NCBI GenBank assembly: GCA_021776525.1
Contig: JAJFFT010000006.1
Span: 62,001-126,000 of the forward strand
Direction: 5' to 3'
Origin: Robiginitomaculum sp.
GTDB taxonomy: Bacteria; Pseudomonadota; Alphaproteobacteria; Caulobacterales; Maricaulaceae
Length of the DNA stretch: 64,000 nt
In this document: one piece after another, positions 25,136 to 45,633 of the stretch
How positions within the stretch are numbered: the first letter of the stretch is position 1
Layout: the number at the start of each line of letters is the position of its first letter
The notes under the pieces: model-generated
The model's database searches: none
What the model was told of the DNA's origin: nothing
What the model saw: only the letters and a program-made list of their open reading frames with translations
Translations under genes and position numbers: made by a program

Positions 25136-25757
25136 GACAACCTCCCCCTATACCGGCTACGCGGCGCTCGCAAGAGAGGCACAGGCAATTGCCGAGGCGG
25201 CGCCGCATCAGACACAGGAACTGGACGCTTTGGTGGTCATGACCGACCCGGTGCGCTTGCCAGACCCGGTGCATCTGGCGCAACACTTGCCCCGACCATG
25301 CACACTGGTTTATCGGCATTTCGGCAACCCTGAGGCTGGCCAGATCACCGCGAAGGCCAGCGCCATTTGCGCGGCGCGCGGCCTTAAATTTTTAATCTCA
25401 TGCGACAGTGGCCTGCCGCCGGATCAAAAGACCGGCGTACATTTTCCCGAAAAATCACATAAGGCCATTGCCGGTTGGCGGGTCGCCATGCCAGGCCGGG
25501 TTTTTACTGCGGCGGCCCATACCCAACAGAGCGCGCAATACGCCCTGTCTGCGGGTGCCGATGCGGTTTTTTTATCGCCGGTCTTTGACACCCGGTGCGA
25601 TGGCGCATGCCCCGCACTGGGTGTTGATCGCTTTACCAGCCTTGCCCGTTCCATCGCCGGTCCGGTTTATGCCCTAGGGGGCATCAATGCCAAAAATGCA
25701 GCTTTATTAAGCGGCGTCGCCGCAGGTATAGCCGTGGTCAGTGCAATTTCAGCTTAG
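25134..25757 (+). CDS. ThiE/TenI-like protein, degenerate
   Basis: A 207-residue TIM-barrel protein of the thiamine-phosphate-synthase superfamily. LVVMTDPVRLPDPVHLAQHLPR, GADAVFLSPVFDTR and YALGGINAKNAALLSG correspond to ThiE blocks. Catalytic positions diverge: the ThiE pattern QIRLK reads VYRHFG, and the NDRADLA block reads SCDSGLP, so thiamine-phosphate synthesis is doubtful; a canonical ThiE is encoded at 43895. Start assignment: the ATG at 25134 overlaps the yggS ATG head-to-head and lacks a clear Shine-Dalgarno, but the N-terminal helix is usual for this alphaproteobacterial subfamily. It overlaps ptsH by four bases at the 3' ends. Confidence 0.8.
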   Translation: MTTSPYTGYAALAREAQAIAEAAPHQTQELDALVVMTDPVRLPDPVHLAQHLPRPCTLVYRHFGNPEAGQITAKASAICAARGLKFLISCDSGLPPDQKTGVHFPEKSHKAIAGWRVAMPGRVFTAAAHTQQSAQYALSAGADAVFLSPVFDTRCDGACPALGVDRFTSLARSIAGPVYALGGINAKNAALLSGVAAGIAVVSAISA

Positions 25758-26065
25758 GTTTCGCCAAACCCATCGGCCACCAGAGCGCACAGGGCCTGCA
25801 CTGCCGCGGCGGCATCCGGTCCTTGGGCGCTGATGGTGAGGTTGGTCCCCTTGGCCGCGGCCAGCATCAAAAGTTCCATAATGGAATCCGCAGATACGCT
25901 GCGCCCACCAGTGCCAACCTCGACCGCTGCGTCAAAATCACGAGCGCAGGTAACAAAGCGTGCCGAAGCACGGGCGTGCAGCCCCCTGGCATTGGGAATA
26001 ATAACATCTTGCGAGAGAGCAGCGGCCTTTTCATCGCGCGCCGGGGTTTGGTCATCATTGCCCAT
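25754..26065 (-). CDS. ptsH: HPr-family phosphocarrier protein
   Basis: A 103-residue HPr/NPr with about 18 extra N-terminal residues. Phosphorylatable His30 is in ARGLHARAS and the regulatory Ser61 is in SADSIMELLMLAA, corresponding to His15 and Ser46 of classical HPr. In alphaproteobacteria it belongs to the nitrogen PTS (EI-Ntr to HPr to EIIA). It overlaps the EIIA gene by 11 bases. The Ser-kinase gene hprK, usually next to it, is not found here. Confidence 0.95.
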   Translation of the reverse strand: MGNDDQTPARDEKAAALSQDVIIPNARGLHARASARFVTCARDFDAAVEVGTGGRSVSADSIMELLMLAAAKGTNLTISAQGPDAAAAVQALCALVADGFGET

Positions 26066-26456
26066 GAGTGATGGCCGATCCCAGAGCGATATAGCGTGAT
26101 CCGGCTTCCAGACCTTGTGCCGCCAGCTCAGCCAACGTGGCTGTGTCGCGCGCCTCGGCGATTTTGATCAACATCGGCAGGTTAACCCCGGCCAGCACCT
26201 CGACCTTGTCTTTATCCAGAAGAGACAGCGCCAAATTTGATGGCGTACCGCCAAACATATCCGTCAGAATCAACACCCCGTCGCCGGTATCTGTGGCTCG
26301 TATTGCTTCGGCAATATCAGTACGGCGACGGTCCATGTCCTCGTCGGCACCAATACAAATGCTTTGCGTGTTATCCTGTGCGCCCACCACATGTTCCATG
26401 GCCGCGATAAATTCGCGGGCCAATAACCCATGGGTTACAACAACCAGTCCGATCAT
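26055..26456 (-). CDS. PTS EIIA component, mannose/fructose family
   Basis: A 133-residue EIIA of the Man type. His9 in VVVTHGLLA is the phospho-acceptor; VLILTDMFGGTPSNLALSLL is the family core block. In alphaproteobacteria this soluble EIIA works without a sugar permease, in a regulatory chain with HPr and ptsN. The ATG at 26456 is used; an upstream GTG at 26468 would add four residues. Between this start and the chvG stop there are only about 80 bases, so no hprK or rapZ intervenes. Confidence 0.93.
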   Translation of the reverse strand: MIGLVVVTHGLLAREFIAAMEHVVGAQDNTQSICIGADEDMDRRRTDIAEAIRATDTGDGVLILTDMFGGTPSNLALSLLDKDKVEVLAGVNLPMLIKIAEARDTATLAELAAQGLEAGSRYIALGSAITHGQ

Positions 26457-26535
26457 GAGGCACCCCACTTCGCCTGCAAAAAACCGCTCTTTACAAGAAT
26501 CTATCTAACCGCATGATGCAAGCCATGCAAAGGGT

Positions 26536-28170
26536 TTATGTCCGCATATCTGTAGGAAGTTCGACCACAAAGCGCGCCCCGGTCGGCCCGGCCTGATCCG
26601 CGCCGTTTTGTGCGGACGGTGTCTGGCGGTTTTCGGCCCAGATGCGACCCTTGTGGGCGGTGCAGATTTGCCGGGCTATGGCCAGGCCCAGACCAGAATG
26701 TGCGCCAAAATTTTCTGACTTTGGGCGGTCCGTGTAGAATCGTTTGAAAATATTATCCAGACTTTCTTCGGGTACACCCGGCCCCTGATCCTCGACAATG
26801 ATGCGCACCGTGCCAAACTCGTCCGCATCATTATGTACGCCCGGCTCCAGACGCACATGGACCTTGCCGCCCTTGGGACTAAAGGTGCGGGCATTATCAA
26901 TCAGGTTTTGAAAAACCCGCGCCAGGGCATCTTCTGATCCGTAAATAATCTCTGGCGTTTGCGGGGCAATATCCAGCACAACCGGGGTGTTCACCCGTGT
27001 GCCATGACCATAACCGGAGACAATATTTCCCAGCAGTTTGCGGACGTCCACCGGTTCAGCCCGGCGACGGGCAAGGTCTGCATCAAGACGGGAATAGGCC
27101 GAAATATCGGTAATCATCCGATTGAGACGCTGCACATCATTTTGCAGAATTTTCAATAGCTTGGCCCGCTGGGCCGGGTCTTTGATGGCCGGCAGGGTTT
27201 CCACAACACTCTGGATGGATGTCAACGGATTTTTAATTTCGTGCGCCACGTCGGCGGCAAAGCTTTCAATCGCCCCAAGGCGGTCGTAAAGCGCCGCCGT
27301 CATGGCTTCGAATGCCAGTGATAAATCGCCAATTTCATCACGCCGACCAGACAAGTCCGGCATGGTGCGGTGTGGCCCGCCGCGGCGAATATGCTCTGCG
27401 GCACGCGCCAGTTTGCGAATCGGCCGGGCGATAAAAATCGTCAGCAGCGCCGATGATAAAAGCGTCACCAGCACAGCCACCAGAATAAATGGCACCAGAG
27501 CCCGGCGCTCTGCAGCGATAATGGCATCCACATCACCGGATTCAACCGTGACTACGCCCAGCACAGCGACCACCCGCTGTACCGGGACAGAAACCGATAC
27601 CAGCCGTTTGCCGTTACCGCCAATGCGTTCGCCCGCCACCGCTTCGCCCAACAGCGCCAGACTGACCTCTTCGGATATGGTGCGGGTGTAATCGCCAATA
27701 CTGCGTTTGAAGGGTGGCAGATCTCGTACTGTATCTACAAATTGTATCATGGCGGCTTGTGCCCGCTCGATCATGCCATGAGGTTTTGGCAAAGGTGCCA
27801 ACGGGTCAACGCGCACCCGGTCCAGCAAAATGGCGCTGTCGGCCACTATACCGCCCTGGGCATCAAACAGGCGGACCCGTGTTGCCTGATCAGCCAGATA
27901 CAGGCTGCTCATCACCGAGCTGGCACGGGGCACGTCCAGTGTCGGTGTAGGCTCGCCATAGGTGGCGGCCTCTTCCAGCACCCCGGCGATCAGTTCGGCC
28001 TGAGAGCGTAAATTGGCGATCCGTGCCTCGATCAACCCCTCGCGCATTTGATCAAGCACCAGAACACCGGCCAGCAGCACGAACAGCCCAGCCAGATTAG
28101 CCAGCAGAATTTGTGCAGAAAGACGCGACCAGGCCCGCGGGTGACGACGATGCGGGGCCTGGGTGGTCAT
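26536..28170 (-). CDS. chvG: Sensor histidine kinase ChvG (ExoS family)
   Basis: A 544-residue inner-membrane kinase. TM1 (about 22-42), a periplasmic stimulus-sensing domain with TRVRLFDAQGGIVADSAIL, TM2 (about 230-250), a HAMP linker, the H-box VAHEIKNPLTSIQ, then HATPase with N-box VFQNLIDNARTF, DQGPGVPEE and HSGLGLAIARQI. All catalytic motifs are intact. ChvG responds to acid/envelope signals in Agrobacterium and Sinorhizobium with ChvI. The start shares one base with the chvI stop (TAATG). Confidence 0.94.
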   Translation of the reverse strand: MTTQAPHRRHPRAWSRLSAQILLANLAGLFVLLAGVLVLDQMREGLIEARIANLRSQAELIAGVLEEAATYGEPTPTLDVPRASSVMSSLYLADQATRVRLFDAQGGIVADSAILLDRVRVDPLAPLPKPHGMIERAQAAMIQFVDTVRDLPPFKRSIGDYTRTISEEVSLALLGEAVAGERIGGNGKRLVSVSVPVQRVVAVLGVVTVESGDVDAIIAAERRALVPFILVAVLVTLLSSALLTIFIARPIRKLARAAEHIRRGGPHRTMPDLSGRRDEIGDLSLAFEAMTAALYDRLGAIESFAADVAHEIKNPLTSIQSVVETLPAIKDPAQRAKLLKILQNDVQRLNRMITDISAYSRLDADLARRRAEPVDVRKLLGNIVSGYGHGTRVNTPVVLDIAPQTPEIIYGSEDALARVFQNLIDNARTFSPKGGKVHVRLEPGVHNDADEFGTVRIIVEDQGPGVPEESLDNIFKRFYTDRPKSENFGAHSGLGLAIARQICTAHKGRIWAENRQTPSAQNGADQAGPTGARFVVELPTDMRT

Positions 28171-28868
28171 TAGGCGGTATAGCGGTAGCCGACGCCATAG
28201 AGTGTTTCGATGGAATCGAAACTGCTATCAACAACGCGGAATTTTTTACGCAGGCGCTTGATGTGCGAATCGATGGTGCGGTCATCGACATAAATCTGAT
28301 CATCATACGCCGCATCCATCAGCTGATCGCGGCTTTTGACATAACCTGGACGCTGGGCCAGTGCCTGTAAGATCAAAAACTCGGTCACCGTCAGACGTAC
28401 CGGCTTGCCATCCCACAAACAGGCATGGCGATTGGGGTCCAGCGTCAGTTGGCCACGAACCACCACTTTTTGATCCCCCTCTTCAGAGGTTTCATCGCCC
28501 ATATCGCCTTGCGAGCGGCGCAAAATGGCCTTGATCCGGCTGGCCAAAAGCCGTTGTGAAAATGGCTTGGTGACATAATCATCGGCCCCCAGATTAAGTC
28601 CCAGAGCCTCGTCAATTTCATCGTCTTTGGAGGTCAGAAAGATCACGGGCATGTTTGAGCTCTGGCGCAAACGGCGCAATAATTCCATGCCATCCATACG
28701 CGGCATTTTTACATCCAGTATGGCCAGCTCCGGCGGACGAGCCGTCAGCCCGCTGAGCGCCGTTGCCCCATCATGGTATGTCTGAACCTGATAGCCCTCG
28801 CCCTCCAGAAACATGGAGACCGAAGTCAGGATATTTTCGTCATCGTCAACAAGTGCAATTGTGGTCAT
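28170..28868 (-). CDS. chvI: Response regulator ChvI
   Basis: A 232-residue OmpR-family regulator. Receiver: acidic residues 8-10, phospho-acceptor Asp52 in AILDVKMP, Thr79, Lys101 in VTKPF. C-terminal winged helix: [29 protein letters not shown] and [15 protein letters not shown], typical of ChvI. The ATG at 28868 is the proper start; upstream codons are not conserved. It is divergent from a large uncharacterised gene across 143 bases; in many relatives pckA occupies that divergent position. Confidence 0.95.
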
Positions 28869-29011
28869 GGGGACTCCCTTGGTCTGAGCATAGCTATTTA
28901 GGTCCCCCTTTCCTAGACACAAAGCTGGACAGAAAGCGGGCCAAATTGCGGCCTTCACCAGACCTTAAAGGATTAAGGTTAATCTGGCCCCTTCAAATCG
29001 GGGACATTTGG

Positions 29012-39899: not shown

Positions 39900-40654
39900 T
39901 CGCCAATCCCATCAACGTCCGCGGTGCGCCATAACAAGTGTTGGCCGCCATCAACAACCAGAGTTTGCCCGGTGACCGCCTTAGCATCCAGCAGATAACG
40001 CACAGCACGAATAATTTCATCCACCGGTGAGCCAGTTCCCAGCAAGGTTGCCGCAACCTGGGCATCAAAATCGGTCTCGCTTTGGCGAACATTGCGCAAT
40101 GTCGGGCCTGGGGCCACCGCATTCACACGAATGCACGGGGCCAGCGCCTGTGCCATAGTCAACGTTGCCGCATTCAGCGCCGCCTTGGAAAGATAATAAC
40201 TGAAAAACTCTGGATTGGGTTTGCGGACCCGTTGATCAATCAGATTGATAATGGCGCCATTTTCATCTTTGGGCAGGTGTGCGGCAAAAGCCTTGGCCAA
40301 AAATACCGGAGCGCGCAGATTGGCATCCATGTGGGTGTCCCACAACGCGTCACTCAGATCATCCAAACGGTCATCTTCAAAATGTGAGGCATTATTGATC
40401 AGCGCATGAAGCGGGCCAATGGCAGTTTGCGCCGCTGTGACCAATGCGTCCGGCGCATCACGATCAGCCAGATCAGCCTGCACAGCCGCCGCAATGCCGC
40501 CCTGTGCGTTGATCTGCTCTACGATGGCTCTGGCTGGGGATTCTGAGTGGCGGTAATGCACCGCAACCCGCCAACCGTCCTGGCTCAAGGCCCGCGCCAT
40601 TGCCTTGCCGACGCGTGCGCCGGCACCTGTGATTAAAACACCGCGCGCAGTCAC
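39896..40654 (-). CDS. SDR-family oxidoreductase, pteridine-reductase-like
   Basis: About 252 residues from GTG 40654, which overlaps the stop of the antiporter gene (GTGA) and has AAGG upstream; upstream codons lie inside the antiporter gene. The Rossmann motif GVLITGAGARVGKAMA has Arg in place of the usual pattern, as in FolM and pteridine reductases. NNAS, the catalytic YYLSKAAL (Tyr, Lys) and RVNAVAPGPTL follow. Coupled with folB, it may reduce dihydropterin or dihydrofolate (FolM role). Function inferred from motif and operon; not certain. Confidence 0.85.
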   Translation of the reverse strand: MTARGVLITGAGARVGKAMARALSQDGWRVAVHYRHSESPARAIVEQINAQGGIAAAVQADLADRDAPDALVTAAQTAIGPLHALINNASHFEDDRLDDLSDALWDTHMDANLRAPVFLAKAFAAHLPKDENGAIINLIDQRVRKPNPEFFSYYLSKAALNAATLTMAQALAPCIRVNAVAPGPTLRNVRQSETDFDAQVAATLLGTGSPVDEIIRAVRYLLDAKAVTGQTLVVDGGQHLLWRTADVDGIGE

Positions 40655-41628
40655 AACAGGCCTTCGCGGTACAACAGGCCAACAAGATAGGCGATATAGG
40701 CCATCAACAAGATCAGGCCGGCAAAGCGACCGATCTTCAAGCGCGCAAAAGCAAAGCCGCCCAGCACCACTCCGGCCGCCACCATGACCCACAGATCATA
40801 TTCCAGAAAACTGTGTGGAACGATAATGTCACCGGCCATTGCCGATGCACCGCCAACGGCAAAGACATTGAATATGTTCGAGCCAAAAGCATTGCCAACG
40901 GCAAGGTCGCCATGACGGCGCAAGGCAGCAATGACCGACGTAGACAGCTCAGGCAGCGAGGTTCCAATCGCCACAATGGTCAGGCCGATCACCGCATCCG
41001 AAACCCCCATCAGTTCAGCAATTTTAACACCATTACTGCCCACCAATTGCCCGCCCAGTGGCAAGCCAATCAGGCCAAGCACAATAAAGATAACGACTGT
41101 TCTGGTGCTTTTGGGCAGGCCCTGCATATGTTCCACATCAGCCATTTCACGAATGTCGGCGGCAACCTCCATACCGGCACGGGCCTGAGTGAACAGATAG
41201 ATCAGGTAAATTATGATCAGGGAGAACAACAAGACGCCCTGCCAGAACACTATCACTCCACCGAACGACAATAAGGTCAGAATTATGGATGCGCTGAGCG
41301 CGAACATTACATTACGCCGCGTCCCCGGCGCGGTGGTGGTAATTGGCAAAATCAGCGCAGGAACGCTGAGCACCAAGAGCATGTTTGCAATGTTAGAGCC
41401 AACGATATTGCCCAGTGCCAAACCGGATGCGCCGTTCAGCACCGCACCAACACTGACCACCAGTTCCGGGGCAGAGGTGCCAAGCGCAACCACCGTCAGA
41501 CCGATGATCAAGGGCGGAACGCCCCACCGGTTGGCCAGAGCCGCCGAGCCGCGCACCAGAACATCACCAGCAAAGAGAAGGAGGACAACGCCAGCGGTAA
41601 GCCAGAACAAATGTATGAAAATCAGCAT
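40651..41628 (-). CDS. Calcium/sodium antiporter (CaCA family, YrbG-type)
   Basis: A 325-residue inner-membrane exchanger with about ten helices in two inverted halves. Both alpha-repeats are clear: VALGTSAPELVVSVGAVLNG...GNIVGSNIANMLL, and VAIGTSLPELSTSVIAALRR...GNAFGSNIFNVF, holding the ion-coordinating Glu/Ser/Asn. The start ATG 41628 (MLIFIHLF) is preceded by GGAG. Probably exports Ca2+ using Na+ or H+. It leads the leftward run SDR-folB-uvrC-HAD-phosphatidyltransferase. Confidence 0.93.
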   Translation of the reverse strand: MLIFIHLFWLTAGVVLLLFAGDVLVRGSAALANRWGVPPLIIGLTVVALGTSAPELVVSVGAVLNGASGLALGNIVGSNIANMLLVLSVPALILPITTTAPGTRRNVMFALSASIILTLLSFGGVIVFWQGVLLFSLIIIYLIYLFTQARAGMEVAADIREMADVEHMQGLPKSTRTVVIFIVLGLIGLPLGGQLVGSNGVKIAELMGVSDAVIGLTIVAIGTSLPELSTSVIAALRRHGDLAVGNAFGSNIFNVFAVGGASAMAGDIIVPHSFLEYDLWVMVAAGVVLGGFAFARLKIGRFAGLILLMAYIAYLVGLLYREGLL

Positions 41629-41834
41629 TGGCACTCCGGTGTGTCCGCCAGCATACTGCCAGCACATCTTGTGCACACCTATAGCCGTTCAACACAAAGA
41701 ATGAAAAGGGCGTTTGTCAGAGTACGTATCGTCAGGGCTCTATAAAAAAATGTAATACAACTTATACGCGATTATTATTTATTTTACTCTTTATACGGTA
41801 CTTACACACAATGATATCAACCCGGAGAACGGTC

Positions 41835-42932
41835 ATGCCTGCCAAACCAGTACATCTTTTTGAAAATTCCACTCATCTTGAAACCATCAACAGAGAACTG
41901 CGCACGCCGCTCACTGATATATTGGGCATGGCACATTTGCTGGATGACACCACATTGGAACATGATCAAAGGGAATATGTGCAAGCCATAATGCGCGCCA
42001 GCCATGAATTGCTGGTCCGCGTTAATAACAGCCTGGATATGGTCCAGCTGGACAATGATGCCCTGGGTGTCGAAGAGGAATTTTTTGGCATAACCGAAGC
42101 CCTGTTGGTCATGGTTGAGCGCCTTCGCCCCACAGCAGCGGCCAAAGGACTTGAACTCAGCCTGGAATTTGCGCCCGATATCGGCACAAAAATCCATTGC
42201 GACAAGGCACGCCTTTCACAAGCCGTGTTTAATTTGACGGCGCACCTGATCGCAAACCATGCCGATGGAGTCATGCGTATGACGGCCAATTTGGTCAATG
42301 ACCAATGGGGCGACACGTTGAGCGTTACGGTCCTCTCGAACGCCAAATACACCCCACCCAAAAACGAGGCTGATGCCTCCACTGATGTGCTGGACATCAC
42401 CCGCCGTCTGGCGCGCCTCATGGGCGGCGAGGTCAATTTAAAAACCGAAGATGATCAAACCCATTGCGGCCAGTTGAGTATCCGTGTGGAGGTTCCCGAA
42501 GAAGAAGACAGCACCCCGGCACGTCCGGCACGCATTCTGGTGGCCGAAGACAGCCGCGCCAACCAGCGACTGATTGGCCTGATCCTGGGAAAATTAGGCC
42601 ATGAGTTTGAACTGGTCGCCAATGGCGTTGAGGCCGTAGAGGCAGCAAAAGTCAGTCATTTTGATATGATTTTGATGGACTTGCATATGCCGCTGATGGA
42701 CGGCATGCAGGCCTGTGAAAAAATCCGCGCGCTGGATGATGAAGCTGCGGCATTGGTCCCGATCATAGCCCTGACCGCTGATGTGCGCCCCGAAATGCCA
42801 GCCCGTGTGCTGGAAGCCGGGATGGATGCTTACCTCACCAAACCGCTGGATGTGCCCAAGCTGGCCGAGATTATTCAGGTCAGCATGAATGCACCGCGCA
42901 GTCGCAATGCCAAACTGGCCAAAAGCGCCTGA
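41835..42932 (+). CDS. Pseudo-histidine-kinase with C-terminal receiver domain
   Basis: A 365-residue soluble protein laid out like a hybrid kinase. Residues 10-75 match a HisKA domain, but the H-box reads NRELRTPLTDILGMAHLL: Arg20 stands where the phospho-acceptor His should be. Residues 100-220 match HATPase only weakly: the N-box reads NLTAHLIANH (Asn to His), the DxGxG and GLGL boxes are missing, and only the last part, RRLARLMGGEVNLKTE, is recognisable. The receiver (233-350) is intact: Glu238-Asp239, Asp282 in LMDLHMP, Thr314, Lys336 in LTKP. It thus cannot be a kinase but can accept phosphate. GGAG precedes ATG 41835; an ATG at 41811 is possible. Confidence 0.88.
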   Translation: MPAKPVHLFENSTHLETINRELRTPLTDILGMAHLLDDTTLEHDQREYVQAIMRASHELLVRVNNSLDMVQLDNDALGVEEEFFGITEALLVMVERLRPTAAAKGLELSLEFAPDIGTKIHCDKARLSQAVFNLTAHLIANHADGVMRMTANLVNDQWGDTLSVTVLSNAKYTPPKNEADASTDVLDITRRLARLMGGEVNLKTEDDQTHCGQLSIRVEVPEEEDSTPARPARILVAEDSRANQRLIGLILGKLGHEFELVANGVEAVEAAKVSHFDMILMDLHMPLMDGMQACEKIRALDDEAAALVPIIALTADVRPEMPARVLEAGMDAYLTKPLDVPKLAEIIQVSMNAPRSRNAKLAKSA

Positions 42933-43894: not shown

Positions 43895-44533
43895 ATGAGT
43901 AAAGAACCCTGCCGCCTTTATCTGATCACGCCGCCGCGCCTTGATGACCTTCCGGGCTTTGCCAGGCAATTGGAAGACGCCCTTGGTGCTGGCGATGTGG
44001 CCGCCCTGCAAATCCGCCTCAAGGACGTGACGGATGAGGATATTCGCGCCGCATTCAGCGCCCTGAACCCCATCGCCCATGCCGCCGGTGTGGCCGTGTT
44101 GATCAATGACCGGGCTGATCTGGCACAGCAATTGGGCGCCGATGGCGTACATCTGGGACAGGGCGACATGCCCTTGCGAGAAGCCCGCAAGGCGCTCGGC
44201 CCGCACATGATGCTGGGTGCCACCGCCCATGACTCGCGACATCTGGCCATGCTTGCCGGGGAAAGTGGGGCGGATTATGTGGCTTTTGGCGCTTTTTTTG
44301 AAAGTGCCACGAAAACGCCTAAAACACAGGCAACAACAGATCTTCTTTCATGGTGGTCGGAGCTATTTGAAATTCCATGCGTAGCAATCGGTGGCATAAC
44401 CGCAGACAATTGCGCCCCTCTGGTCGAGGCGGGCGCCGACTTTTTGGCCGTATGCGGCGGGGTCTGGAACGCCTCTGGCGGCCCGGCGCAGGCCGTACGC
44501 GACCTGAATGTGGCCATGACCTTGGCGCGCTGA
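43895..44533 (+). CDS. thiE: Thiamine-phosphate synthase
   Basis: A 212-residue TIM-barrel enzyme joining the thiazole and pyrimidine moieties of thiamine. Canonical blocks: [11 protein letters not shown] (with Lys), [35 protein letters not shown], and [22 protein letters not shown]. The active-site residues missing in the ThiE-like protein at 25134 are present here. The start at 43895 ([12 protein letters not shown]) has GAGG upstream. The next gene follows after eight bases. Confidence 0.93.
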
Positions 44534-44541
44534 TTATTGCC

Positions 44542-45633
44542 ATGGCGCTACTGCCCTTTGCGGCACTGGCCCAAGATAATAAACCCGACGACATTCCTAT
44601 GTTCAAGGAAGGCATTGTCTTGCAAGAGGGCAGCCTGCCGCCTCTGATCGATCTGCCGGAATTTCCTGAAACGGATTTTTCCAGTGATGAATTTGCTGCT
44701 GCTGATGCTTATGGACGCGGTGATTATGACCAGGCCCGCACGCTGGCCGCCGCGCAAAGCGCCGAAGGTGATGCCCGGGCCCAGTTTCTCTTTGCTGTTA
44801 TGTTACGCAAAGGCCAGGGCGGCGAAGTCAATCCGGCCTTGGCTGTGCGCTGGTTTCAAAAGGCCGCCAAAAGTGGTGAAGTGCACGCCTGGTTGTCTCT
44901 GGCTGAAATGGCCTTTGATAACCAAGGCGGCCTGTTTGCCGGCGATGGGCGCGGCTATTTGATCAAAGCCGCTAATAAAGGCTCAACCGAAGCCAAAATT
45001 GTTTTGGCGCAGGTGATGATGTCTGGCGTAGGCGGCCCGCCCGATACCGAAAAAGCCAAAACATGGTACCACAGCGCCATTTATGACGGCAGCGTTATGG
45101 CCAAACGATTGCTGGGCGATGTTTTATATTCCCAATCCAAGGACGAGGAAGCGCTGGCACTTTATATCGCCGCGGCCCGTGAAGGCGATGCACGTTCGGC
45201 CTATCAGGCCGGGATTATTCTGGCTGACCCGGAAAGCACGCTTCATGATGAAAGTGCGGCCCGGCCATTGATCGAACAAGCCGCACTGGATGCCCTACCC
45301 GAAGCCATGACCGCCTGGGCAATCTTTGCCATAACACAAGAGCCACCACGTCCGGCCAAAGCAGCACGCTGGTTACGCAAAGCCGCCAACGCGGATGATG
45401 GTGAGGGCCAGTATCTGTACGCCATAGCTCTGGCCAAGGGTGAGGGCGTACTGGAAAACCGTGAAGAAGCTTATGAATGGGCAGTGCGCGCCGTACGCCA
45501 TGACCCCGAAGACCAAGAGCGTCGCGCTCTGGCCGTCGCGCTGGGCAGCGCCCTGCCCGGCCCCGTGCGCGGGCGTATAGAAGAGATCGCCGAACAGCCT
45601 TTGCTGGTTTTTTCACACACCGCTTCGCCTTGA
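44542..45633 (+). CDS. Sel1-repeat protein, exported
   Basis: About 363 residues with a run of Sel1-like (TPR-type) repeats from about residue 60 on (for example FLFAVMLRKGQGGEVNPALAVRWFQKAAK, then YLYAIALAKGEGVLENREEA). The N-terminus MALLPFAALAQ looks like the end of a signal peptide but lacks a basic n-region, so the true start is uncertain. The frame is open far upstream inside thiE (for instance ATG 44452), and CTG/ATT codons just ahead are possible. Sel1 proteins scaffold protein-protein contacts. Position between thiE and efp is common in this class. Confidence 0.83.
   Translation: MALLPFAALAQDNKPDDIPMFKEGIVLQEGSLPPLIDLPEFPETDFSSDEFAAADAYGRGDYDQARTLAAAQSAEGDARAQFLFAVMLRKGQGGEVNPALAVRWFQKAAKSGEVHAWLSLAEMAFDNQGGLFAGDGRGYLIKAANKGSTEAKIVLAQVMMSGVGGPPDTEKAKTWYHSAIYDGSVMAKRLLGDVLYSQSKDEEALALYIAAAREGDARSAYQAGIILADPESTLHDESAARPLIEQAALDALPEAMTAWAIFAITQEPPRPAKAARWLRKAANADDGEGQYLYAIALAKGEGVLENREEAYEWAVRAVRHDPEDQERRALAVALGSALPGPVRGRIEEIAEQPLLVFSHTASP

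What the first reader, a model, noticed from the sequence alone, without database searches (positions are those of the whole stretch)
41835..42932. Hybrid-kinase-shaped protein whose kinase half is dead but whose receiver is intact
The H-box reads NRELRTPLTDILG where the usual form is SHELRTPL: Arg replaces the phospho-acceptor His. The N-box Asn is replaced by His (NLTAHLIANH), and the DxGxG and GLGL nucleotide boxes are missing, while the end of the HATPase fold (RRLARLMGGEVNLKTE) and a fully equipped receiver (Asp282, Thr314, Lys336) remain. There is no sensor or membrane part. The protein could be a scaffold or a phosphate sink for a partner kinase, like the pseudokinase DivL in principle, but with a receiver as the only active part. 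Loss of all catalytic boxes in a frame without interruption, in an otherwise normal gene, argues for selected function rather than decay.
Basis: partly seen in the sequence, partly recalled or inferred. Interest (0 to 1): 0.68.

Follow-up and report, generated by a model that had tools for sequence, protein, structure and literature searches.

The report
Conserved dead histidine kinase with live receiver
Eleven related, apparently uncultured bacteria have kept a small signalling protein that evolved from a working histidine kinase but lost its ATP-binding machinery and usually its phosphate-accepting histidine, while its receiver domain stays intact, so it probably tunes another kinase's signal instead of making its own.

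Summary
Window 41835-42932 encodes a 365-aa soluble protein: a histidine-kinase DHp domain with Arg at the phospho-acceptor site, an ATPase (CA) remnant without N-, G1-, F- and G2-boxes, and a complete receiver. It is not a local accident. Ten other species of the genus have the same protein at the same locus with the same ATP-lid deletion and an intact receiver, under strong purifying selection in all three parts (Ka/Ks about 0.02-0.29). In the sister branch of the genus the orthologue at the same locus is a complete HisKA-HATPase-REC soluble hybrid kinase, so the ancestor was probably active. The acceptor is Arg in 8 of the 11 (five different Arg codons) and His in 3; two of those are best explained as Arg-to-His reversions. 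The ATP pocket is gone in all 11. No such protein was found outside the genus in 398 sampled genomes of the order. The closest studied precedent is RetS (degenerate HATPase, active receiver), not DivL. Most likely it works like RetS: its DHp docks on a partner kinase or its receiver, and its own receiver takes phosphate, damping a phosphorelay. The partner is unknown and the mechanism is inferred. It is a new variant of a known kind.

The parts
41835..42932 (+). coding sequence of the 365-aa pseudo-hybrid kinase
   Evidence: open frame; start Met invariant in 11 orthologues
41824..41827 (+). GGAG ribosome-binding site, 7 nt before the ATG
   Evidence: GGAG or similar before the ATG in most orthologues
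41770..41793 (+). conserved upstream block GATTATTATTTATTTTACTCTTTA, probable promoter or operator (function not shown)
   Evidence: near-identical in 9-10 of the 11 dead-type species, not seen by eye upstream of the intact-type genes
41874..42056 (+). HisKA / DHp dimerisation domain
   Evidence: PF00512, 42.7 bits, over cut-off
41892..41894 (+). AGA, Arg at the phospho-acceptor position (residue 20 from 41835)
   Evidence: Arg in 8 and His in 3 of 11 orthologues; His in all intact sister-branch orthologues
42075..42518 (+). remnant of the catalytic ATP-binding (CA) domain without nucleotide boxes
   Evidence: HATPase_c not detected at E 0.01 in 10 of 11
42243..42245 (+). His where the Mg-binding N-box Asn should be
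   Evidence: H, S or Y in all 11 dead-type orthologues; N in all intact ones
42344..42345 (+). junction where 17 residues holding the G1 box, F-box and ATP-lid region are missing relative to the sister-branch kinase
42534..42875 (+). receiver (REC) domain, complete
   Evidence: PF00072, 85.9 bits; active-site residues conserved in all 11
42678..42680 (+). Asp phospho-acceptor of the receiver (residue 282 from 41835)
   Evidence: invariant in 17 of 17 orthologues
40651..41676 (-). divergent neighbour: calcium/sodium antiporter, the synteny anchor of the locus

Best explanation
This is a selectively maintained histidine pseudokinase that descends from a soluble, sensor-less hybrid kinase. Shown here by sequence: one branch of the genus lost the ATP-binding pocket, kept the DHp domain, part of the CA fold and the receiver, and replaced the acceptor His mostly by Arg. 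Inferred: it cannot phosphorylate itself. It works like RetS, as a trans-acting modulator. Its DHp dimer docks on a partner hybrid kinase or on a phosphorylated receiver, and its own receiver Asp282 accepts a phosphoryl group from a partner His (a kinase, ChpT or the small HPt protein), so it drains or resets a phosphorelay. The Thr of the H-x-x-x-T motif, the residue needed for receiver dephosphorylation in HisKA proteins, is kept (Ser in one species), while His and the adjacent Glu needed for kinase activity are relaxed. That fits a phosphatase or sink and not a kinase.
For: Eleven species share the dead CA domain and a complete receiver. The sister branch has an intact orthologue at the same locus. 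Ka/Ks is 0.02-0.12 per domain for the closest pairs with unsaturated Ks, including the CA remnant at 0.07-0.10. Arg is kept through five codons, CGT, CGC, CGG, AGA and AGG. H+1 Glu is lost in 6 of 11 while H+4 Thr/Ser is kept in 11 of 11, matching the split kinase and phosphatase roles in PMC3510030. Precedent: RetS lacks G-boxes, uses REC2 as a phosphate sink and its HisKA domain as a receiver phosphatase (PMC5992135); RetS is also the best PDB sequence match of the kinase half. Possible donors exist in the genome: 24 HisKA matches, one separate small HPt protein and ChpT.
Against: No partner gene sits next to it and no partner was identified. No structure could be modelled (single-sequence AlphaFold pLDDT 37.6). 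Two species carry a restored canonical SHELRTPL, which a pure sink or scaffold would not need. Thr conservation may be merely structural. Phosphorylation of the receiver is assumed from its residues, not measured.
Confidence: 0.5

Rival explanations
1. It is simply a response regulator: the receiver is the functional part and is phosphorylated by a separate kinase or HPt, and the kinase-like half is now an output or dimerisation arm that binds a target when the receiver is phosphorylated.
For: Receiver active site complete in 11 of 11. The N-terminal part of the CA remnant is more conserved in the dead branch than in the intact one (72% versus 61% mean identity, receiver equal at 75%; column-shift test about 0.05), as expected of a new binding surface. 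The cell has ChpT and a small HPt.
Against: DHp surface residues are conserved too, so docking to a receiver or kinase has not obviously been given up. No target is known.
Confidence: 0.25
2. It is a DivL-like sensor of a phosphorylated response regulator: DHp binds a partner receiver~P without turning it over and passes the information to a partner kinase.
For: Acceptor His replaced, no nucleotide boxes, maintained by selection. DivL is among the seven PDB matches of the kinase half (4q20, E 6.7e-11). The genome has ChpT, hence the CckA/CtrA type of circuit.
Against: DivL has Tyr, no receiver, and PAS domains that give phospho-specificity (PMC4211667); this protein has none of these and adds its own receiver.
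Confidence: 0.12
3. It still acts as a phosphotransferase in trans: a partner kinase's CA domain or a receiver~P phosphorylates the DHp in the His-bearing species, and Arg-bearing species have lost that step.
For: Three dead-type orthologues have His, two of them a full SHELRTPL that arose by reversion. DHp proteins without kinase activity that transfer phosphate are known (ChpT, Spo0B; own knowledge).
Against: Eight of 11 species, including this window, have Arg, which cannot accept phosphate in this chemistry.
Confidence: 0.06
4. The gene is decaying and has no function.
For: Loss of all catalytic boxes; higher divergence of the C-terminal CA half (45% versus 55% identity).
Against: Intact frame, start and stop in 11 species, Ka/Ks of 0.02-0.29 wherever Ks could be estimated in all three parts, conserved upstream block.
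Confidence: 0.02

Closest known systems
RetS of Pseudomonas aeruginosa (degenerate hybrid sensor kinase that inhibits GacS)
   Same: HisKA domain plus HATPase domain without G-boxes, working receiver; best PDB sequence match of the kinase half (6dk8, E 3.7e-16); RetS receiver takes phosphate from a partner kinase
   Different: RetS has a periplasmic sensor, membrane part, two receivers and keeps His. This protein is soluble, sensor-less, has one receiver and mostly Arg. No GacS-like partner was identified.
Soluble hybrid kinase orthologues of the sister branch of the genus (L049-L054)
   Same: Same locus, same order of domains, 37-41% identity over the full length
   Different: They keep His, N-box, DxGxG, F-box and GLGL
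ShkA of Caulobacter crescentus
   Same: Hybrid kinase whose solved structure is the best full-profile PDB match (6qrj, E 2.9e-40; identity of 6qrj as ShkA from own knowledge)
   Different: ShkA is catalytically active, c-di-GMP controlled, and has a pseudo-receiver before its true receiver (PMC7010744)
DivL pseudokinase (Alphaproteobacteria)
   Same: HK fold without kinase activity, acceptor His replaced
   Different: Tyr in place of His, PAS domains, no receiver, CA domain retained (PMC4211667)
Osp and FixT, receiver-like inhibitors of kinases
   Same: Soluble receiver proteins that damp a hybrid or simple kinase in Alphaproteobacteria
   Different: Single receiver domain lacking acidic residues and not phosphorylated (PMC9430884); here the acidic pair is invariant and a DHp/CA remnant is attached
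Plant subfamily-2 ethylene receptors (ETR2, EIN4) and enterobacterial RcsD
   Same: Degenerate histidine-kinase module joined to a still usable phosphorelay domain (own knowledge)
   Different: Membrane receptors; RcsD carries an HPt and not a receiver; unrelated lineages; not tested here

Membership tests
Active hybrid histidine kinase (HisKA-HATPase_c-REC) | phospho-acceptor His in the H-box | tested here: not met
   Arg in the window and in 7 orthologues, His in 3
Active hybrid histidine kinase (HisKA-HATPase_c-REC) | N, G1, F and G2 nucleotide boxes | tested here: not met
   absent in all 11; HATPase_c not found at E 0.01 in 10 of 11
Active hybrid histidine kinase (HisKA-HATPase_c-REC) | receiver with acidic pair, Asp, Thr/Ser, Lys | tested here: met
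   all kept in 11 of 11
RetS-type degenerate hybrid kinase | HisKA plus HATPase-like domain lacking G-boxes | tested here: met
   RetS description
RetS-type degenerate hybrid kinase | functional receiver that takes phosphate from a partner kinase | not testable with these tools
   residues present; transfer needs biochemistry
RetS-type degenerate hybrid kinase | HExxT phosphatase motif | tested here: inconclusive
   Thr kept (Ser in one), His and Glu often replaced; PMC3510030 says Thr/Asn is the residue needed, but the activity was not measured
RetS-type degenerate hybrid kinase | membrane/periplasmic sensor region and two receivers (orthology to RetS) | tested here: not met
   no segment before the DHp domain, one receiver; works like RetS, not a RetS orthologue
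DivL | Tyr at the acceptor site, PAS domains, no receiver | tested here: not met
   Arg, no PAS in Pfam scan, receiver present
ChpT / Spo0B phosphotransferase | acceptor His for phosphotransfer | tested here: not met
   Arg in the window protein; the genome's ChpT is a separate gene
Osp / FixT receiver-like kinase inhibitor | stand-alone receiver without the acidic residues | tested here: not met
   Glu238/Asp239 invariant and a DHp/CA remnant attached

The most novel reading that the evidence does not exclude
Arg at the old acceptor site has been recruited: it could reach into the acidic phospho-pocket of a receiver (its own or a partner's) and hold it, making the protein a dedicated, sensor-less receiver trap or phosphatase. 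His/Arg interchange, including reversion, would tune that function. The protein would then be a soluble adaptor built only from a dead DHp/CA core and a live receiver, created by loss of the ATP lid from a working kinase at one fixed locus.
Probability: 0.12. Interest if true: 0.65.

Novelty: new variant of a known kind. Interest (0 to 1): 0.45.

Why it matters
Histidine pseudokinases with known function are few (DivL, RetS and some others) and how they arise is mostly unseen. Here the same locus holds a complete soluble hybrid kinase in one branch of a genus and a dead one in the other. That gives a before-and-after pair in which the steps (loss of the ATP pocket, His to Arg, and a likely return to His) can be read and tested biochemically with two small soluble proteins. 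It also warns annotation pipelines that list such genes as hybrid histidine kinases.

Tried and rejected
The genome-contig scan returned only one distant locus with no bearing on the question. 16S rRNA for naming the organism: none in this assembly. CtrA-type TTAA-N7-TTAA sites upstream: none. Sigma-70 and terminator scan: no more than chance. Decay of the gene: rejected by Ka/Ks and conservation. Apparent absence of the gene in G013: rejected, it is an intact-type gene with a frame break in a long A-run, most likely an assembly error.

Full report
Check of the observation. The frame at 41811-42932 is open. Met-9 of that frame, at 41835, is the true start: it is invariant among orthologues and has GGAG 7 nt upstream. 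Numbering below is from 41835. The H-box reads NRELRTPLTDILG with Arg20 (codon AGA). The N-box Asn is His137. The DxGxG, F and GLGL boxes are missing. The last CA helix (RRLARLMGG) and a complete receiver (Glu238, Asp239, Asp282, Thr314, Lys336) remain. Pfam reports HisKA and Response_reg over their cut-offs and HATPase_c below its own.

Orthologues. Searching 61 relatives and then all 18 held species of the genus gave two groups. Group one has 11 species, the window's included; the other ten are 52-74% identical to the window protein over the full length. Group two, six species, is 37-41% identical. A seventh group-two species, G013, carries the gene broken in a long A-run between kinase and receiver, probably an assembly error. 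In group one every member lacks the N-box Asn (H, S or Y instead) and has the same 17-column deletion that removes the ATP lid; HATPase_c is not detected at E 0.01 in 10 of 11. In group two every member has SHEIRTPL, an N-box Asn, DSGPG-type and GLGL boxes, and HATPase_c, with the best member at 5e-27.

Same locus. Group-one genes share the window's gene order on both sides in all members checked except downstream in G010. Five of the group-two genes (G015, G011, G014, G006, G016) lie next to the same divergent calcium/sodium antiporter, and the first four also next to the SDR and folB genes. In G009 and G013 the gene lies elsewhere. This makes the two groups orthologous and the intact form the likely ancestor. 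No comparable dead form was found outside the genus among 398 genomes drawn from the order. Other genera have only longer hybrid kinases at up to about 42% identity to the intact form.

Selection. Ka/Ks by domain for close pairs (Ks near or below 1) is 0.03-0.12 in DHp, 0.07-0.10 in the CA remnant and 0.02-0.06 in the receiver, similar to the intact pairs. More distant pairs give up to 0.29, with saturated Ks, so those are rough. Mean identity within the dead group versus within the intact group is 66 versus 73% for DHp, 72 versus 61% for the N-terminal half of CA, 45 versus 55% for its C-terminal half and 75 versus 75% for the receiver. So the part of CA next to DHp seems to have gained constraint while the former ATP lobe drifted. 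A column-shift test gives about 0.05 for the gain, so this is suggestive only. An AT-rich block about 40-65 nt before the start codon is nearly identical in 9-10 of the 11 species and was not seen upstream of the intact genes.

The acceptor site. Arg occurs in 8 and His in 3 of the 11. The Arg codons are AGA, CGT, CGG, AGG and CGC, so the residue has been kept while its codon changed. On a UvrC plus antiporter species tree, G002 and G012 (His) lie inside the Arg group as sisters of G007 (Arg, CGT), with 97-100% support around them, and two changes suffice. G010 (His) is near the base but its place is unsure. The best reading is His to Arg once, then Arg to His (CGT to CAT, one base) in the ancestor of G002 and G012. 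No member has a nucleotide pocket, so the returned His cannot restore autokinase activity by itself. Residue H+1, the Glu needed for kinase activity, is Gln or Thr in 6 of 11; residue H+4, the Thr/Asn needed for phosphatase activity, is Thr in 10 and Ser in 1. The separate roles of these two residues are from PMC3510030, where an H-to-A mutant kept most phosphatase activity.

Mechanism. Shown by sequence: loss of the kinase boxes, retention of the DHp core and a complete receiver, purifying selection, descent from an intact kinase. Inferred: the rest. The best precedent is RetS. Its HATPase domain lacks the G-boxes and it cannot autophosphorylate, yet it takes phosphate from GacS on a receiver Asp, dephosphorylates the GacS receiver through HExxT, and blocks GacS autophosphorylation (PMC5992135). 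RetS is also the best PDB match of the kinase half, ahead of ShkA and DivL. I therefore propose a soluble RetS-like modulator that drains or resets a phosphorelay. Candidate donors in this genome are 24 HisKA matches, ChpT and one 145-aa HPt. No partner is shown.

Family membership. It is not an active hybrid kinase, not DivL (Tyr, PAS, no receiver; PMC4211667), not ChpT or Spo0B (no His in this species), and not Osp or FixT (their receivers lack acidic residues; PMC9430884). It works like RetS in anatomy but is not its orthologue: no sensor, one receiver, mostly Arg.

Novelty and score. Degenerate hybrid kinases are known. A sensor-less soluble one, with its intact counterpart at the same locus in sister species and a likely Arg-to-His reversion, appears to be new in the papers found here, but this was a limited open-access search. 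The organism could not be named: its ChvG best fits NCBIfam's ChvG model NF058527 below cut-off and it has ChpT, so an alphaproteobacterium is very likely (own knowledge of these families). All relatives in the genus are unnamed, mostly fragmented assemblies. Interest 0.45.

Noticed in passing
41770-41793: AT-rich block GATTATTATTTATTTTACTCTTTA nearly identical upstream of the dead-type gene in 9-10 of 11 species; probable promoter or operator, no CtrA-type site in it.
   Followed up: partly
L087 around 9395 (G013:C15): The G013 orthologue is an intact-type kinase whose frame breaks in a long run of A between kinase and receiver, either an assembly error or a natural split into kinase and regulator.
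   Followed up: partly
25754-28958: Likely ChvG/ChvI two-component pair beside an HPr-like and a PTS-like gene, a typical alphaproteobacterial cluster.
   Followed up: no
44377-45633: Sel1-repeat-like protein with a weak, far-below-cut-off match to ExoR, the ChvG regulator of rhizobia (54 versus 450 bits); the called start overlaps thiE and is probably too early.
   Followed up: no
residues 54-58 from 41835 (window about 41994-42008): An invariant R-x-S-H-E in the second DHp helix of all 11 dead-type proteins (intact ones have a different sequence here); whether His57 has any role is unknown.
   Followed up: no
L086 / L121 (G009) and L087 / L123 (G013): In these two sister species the intact kinase gene lies away from the antiporter locus.
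   Followed up: partly
L074 12761-14636 (G012 uvrC): uvrC of G012 is broken into two frames, possibly a draft-assembly error.
   Followed up: no
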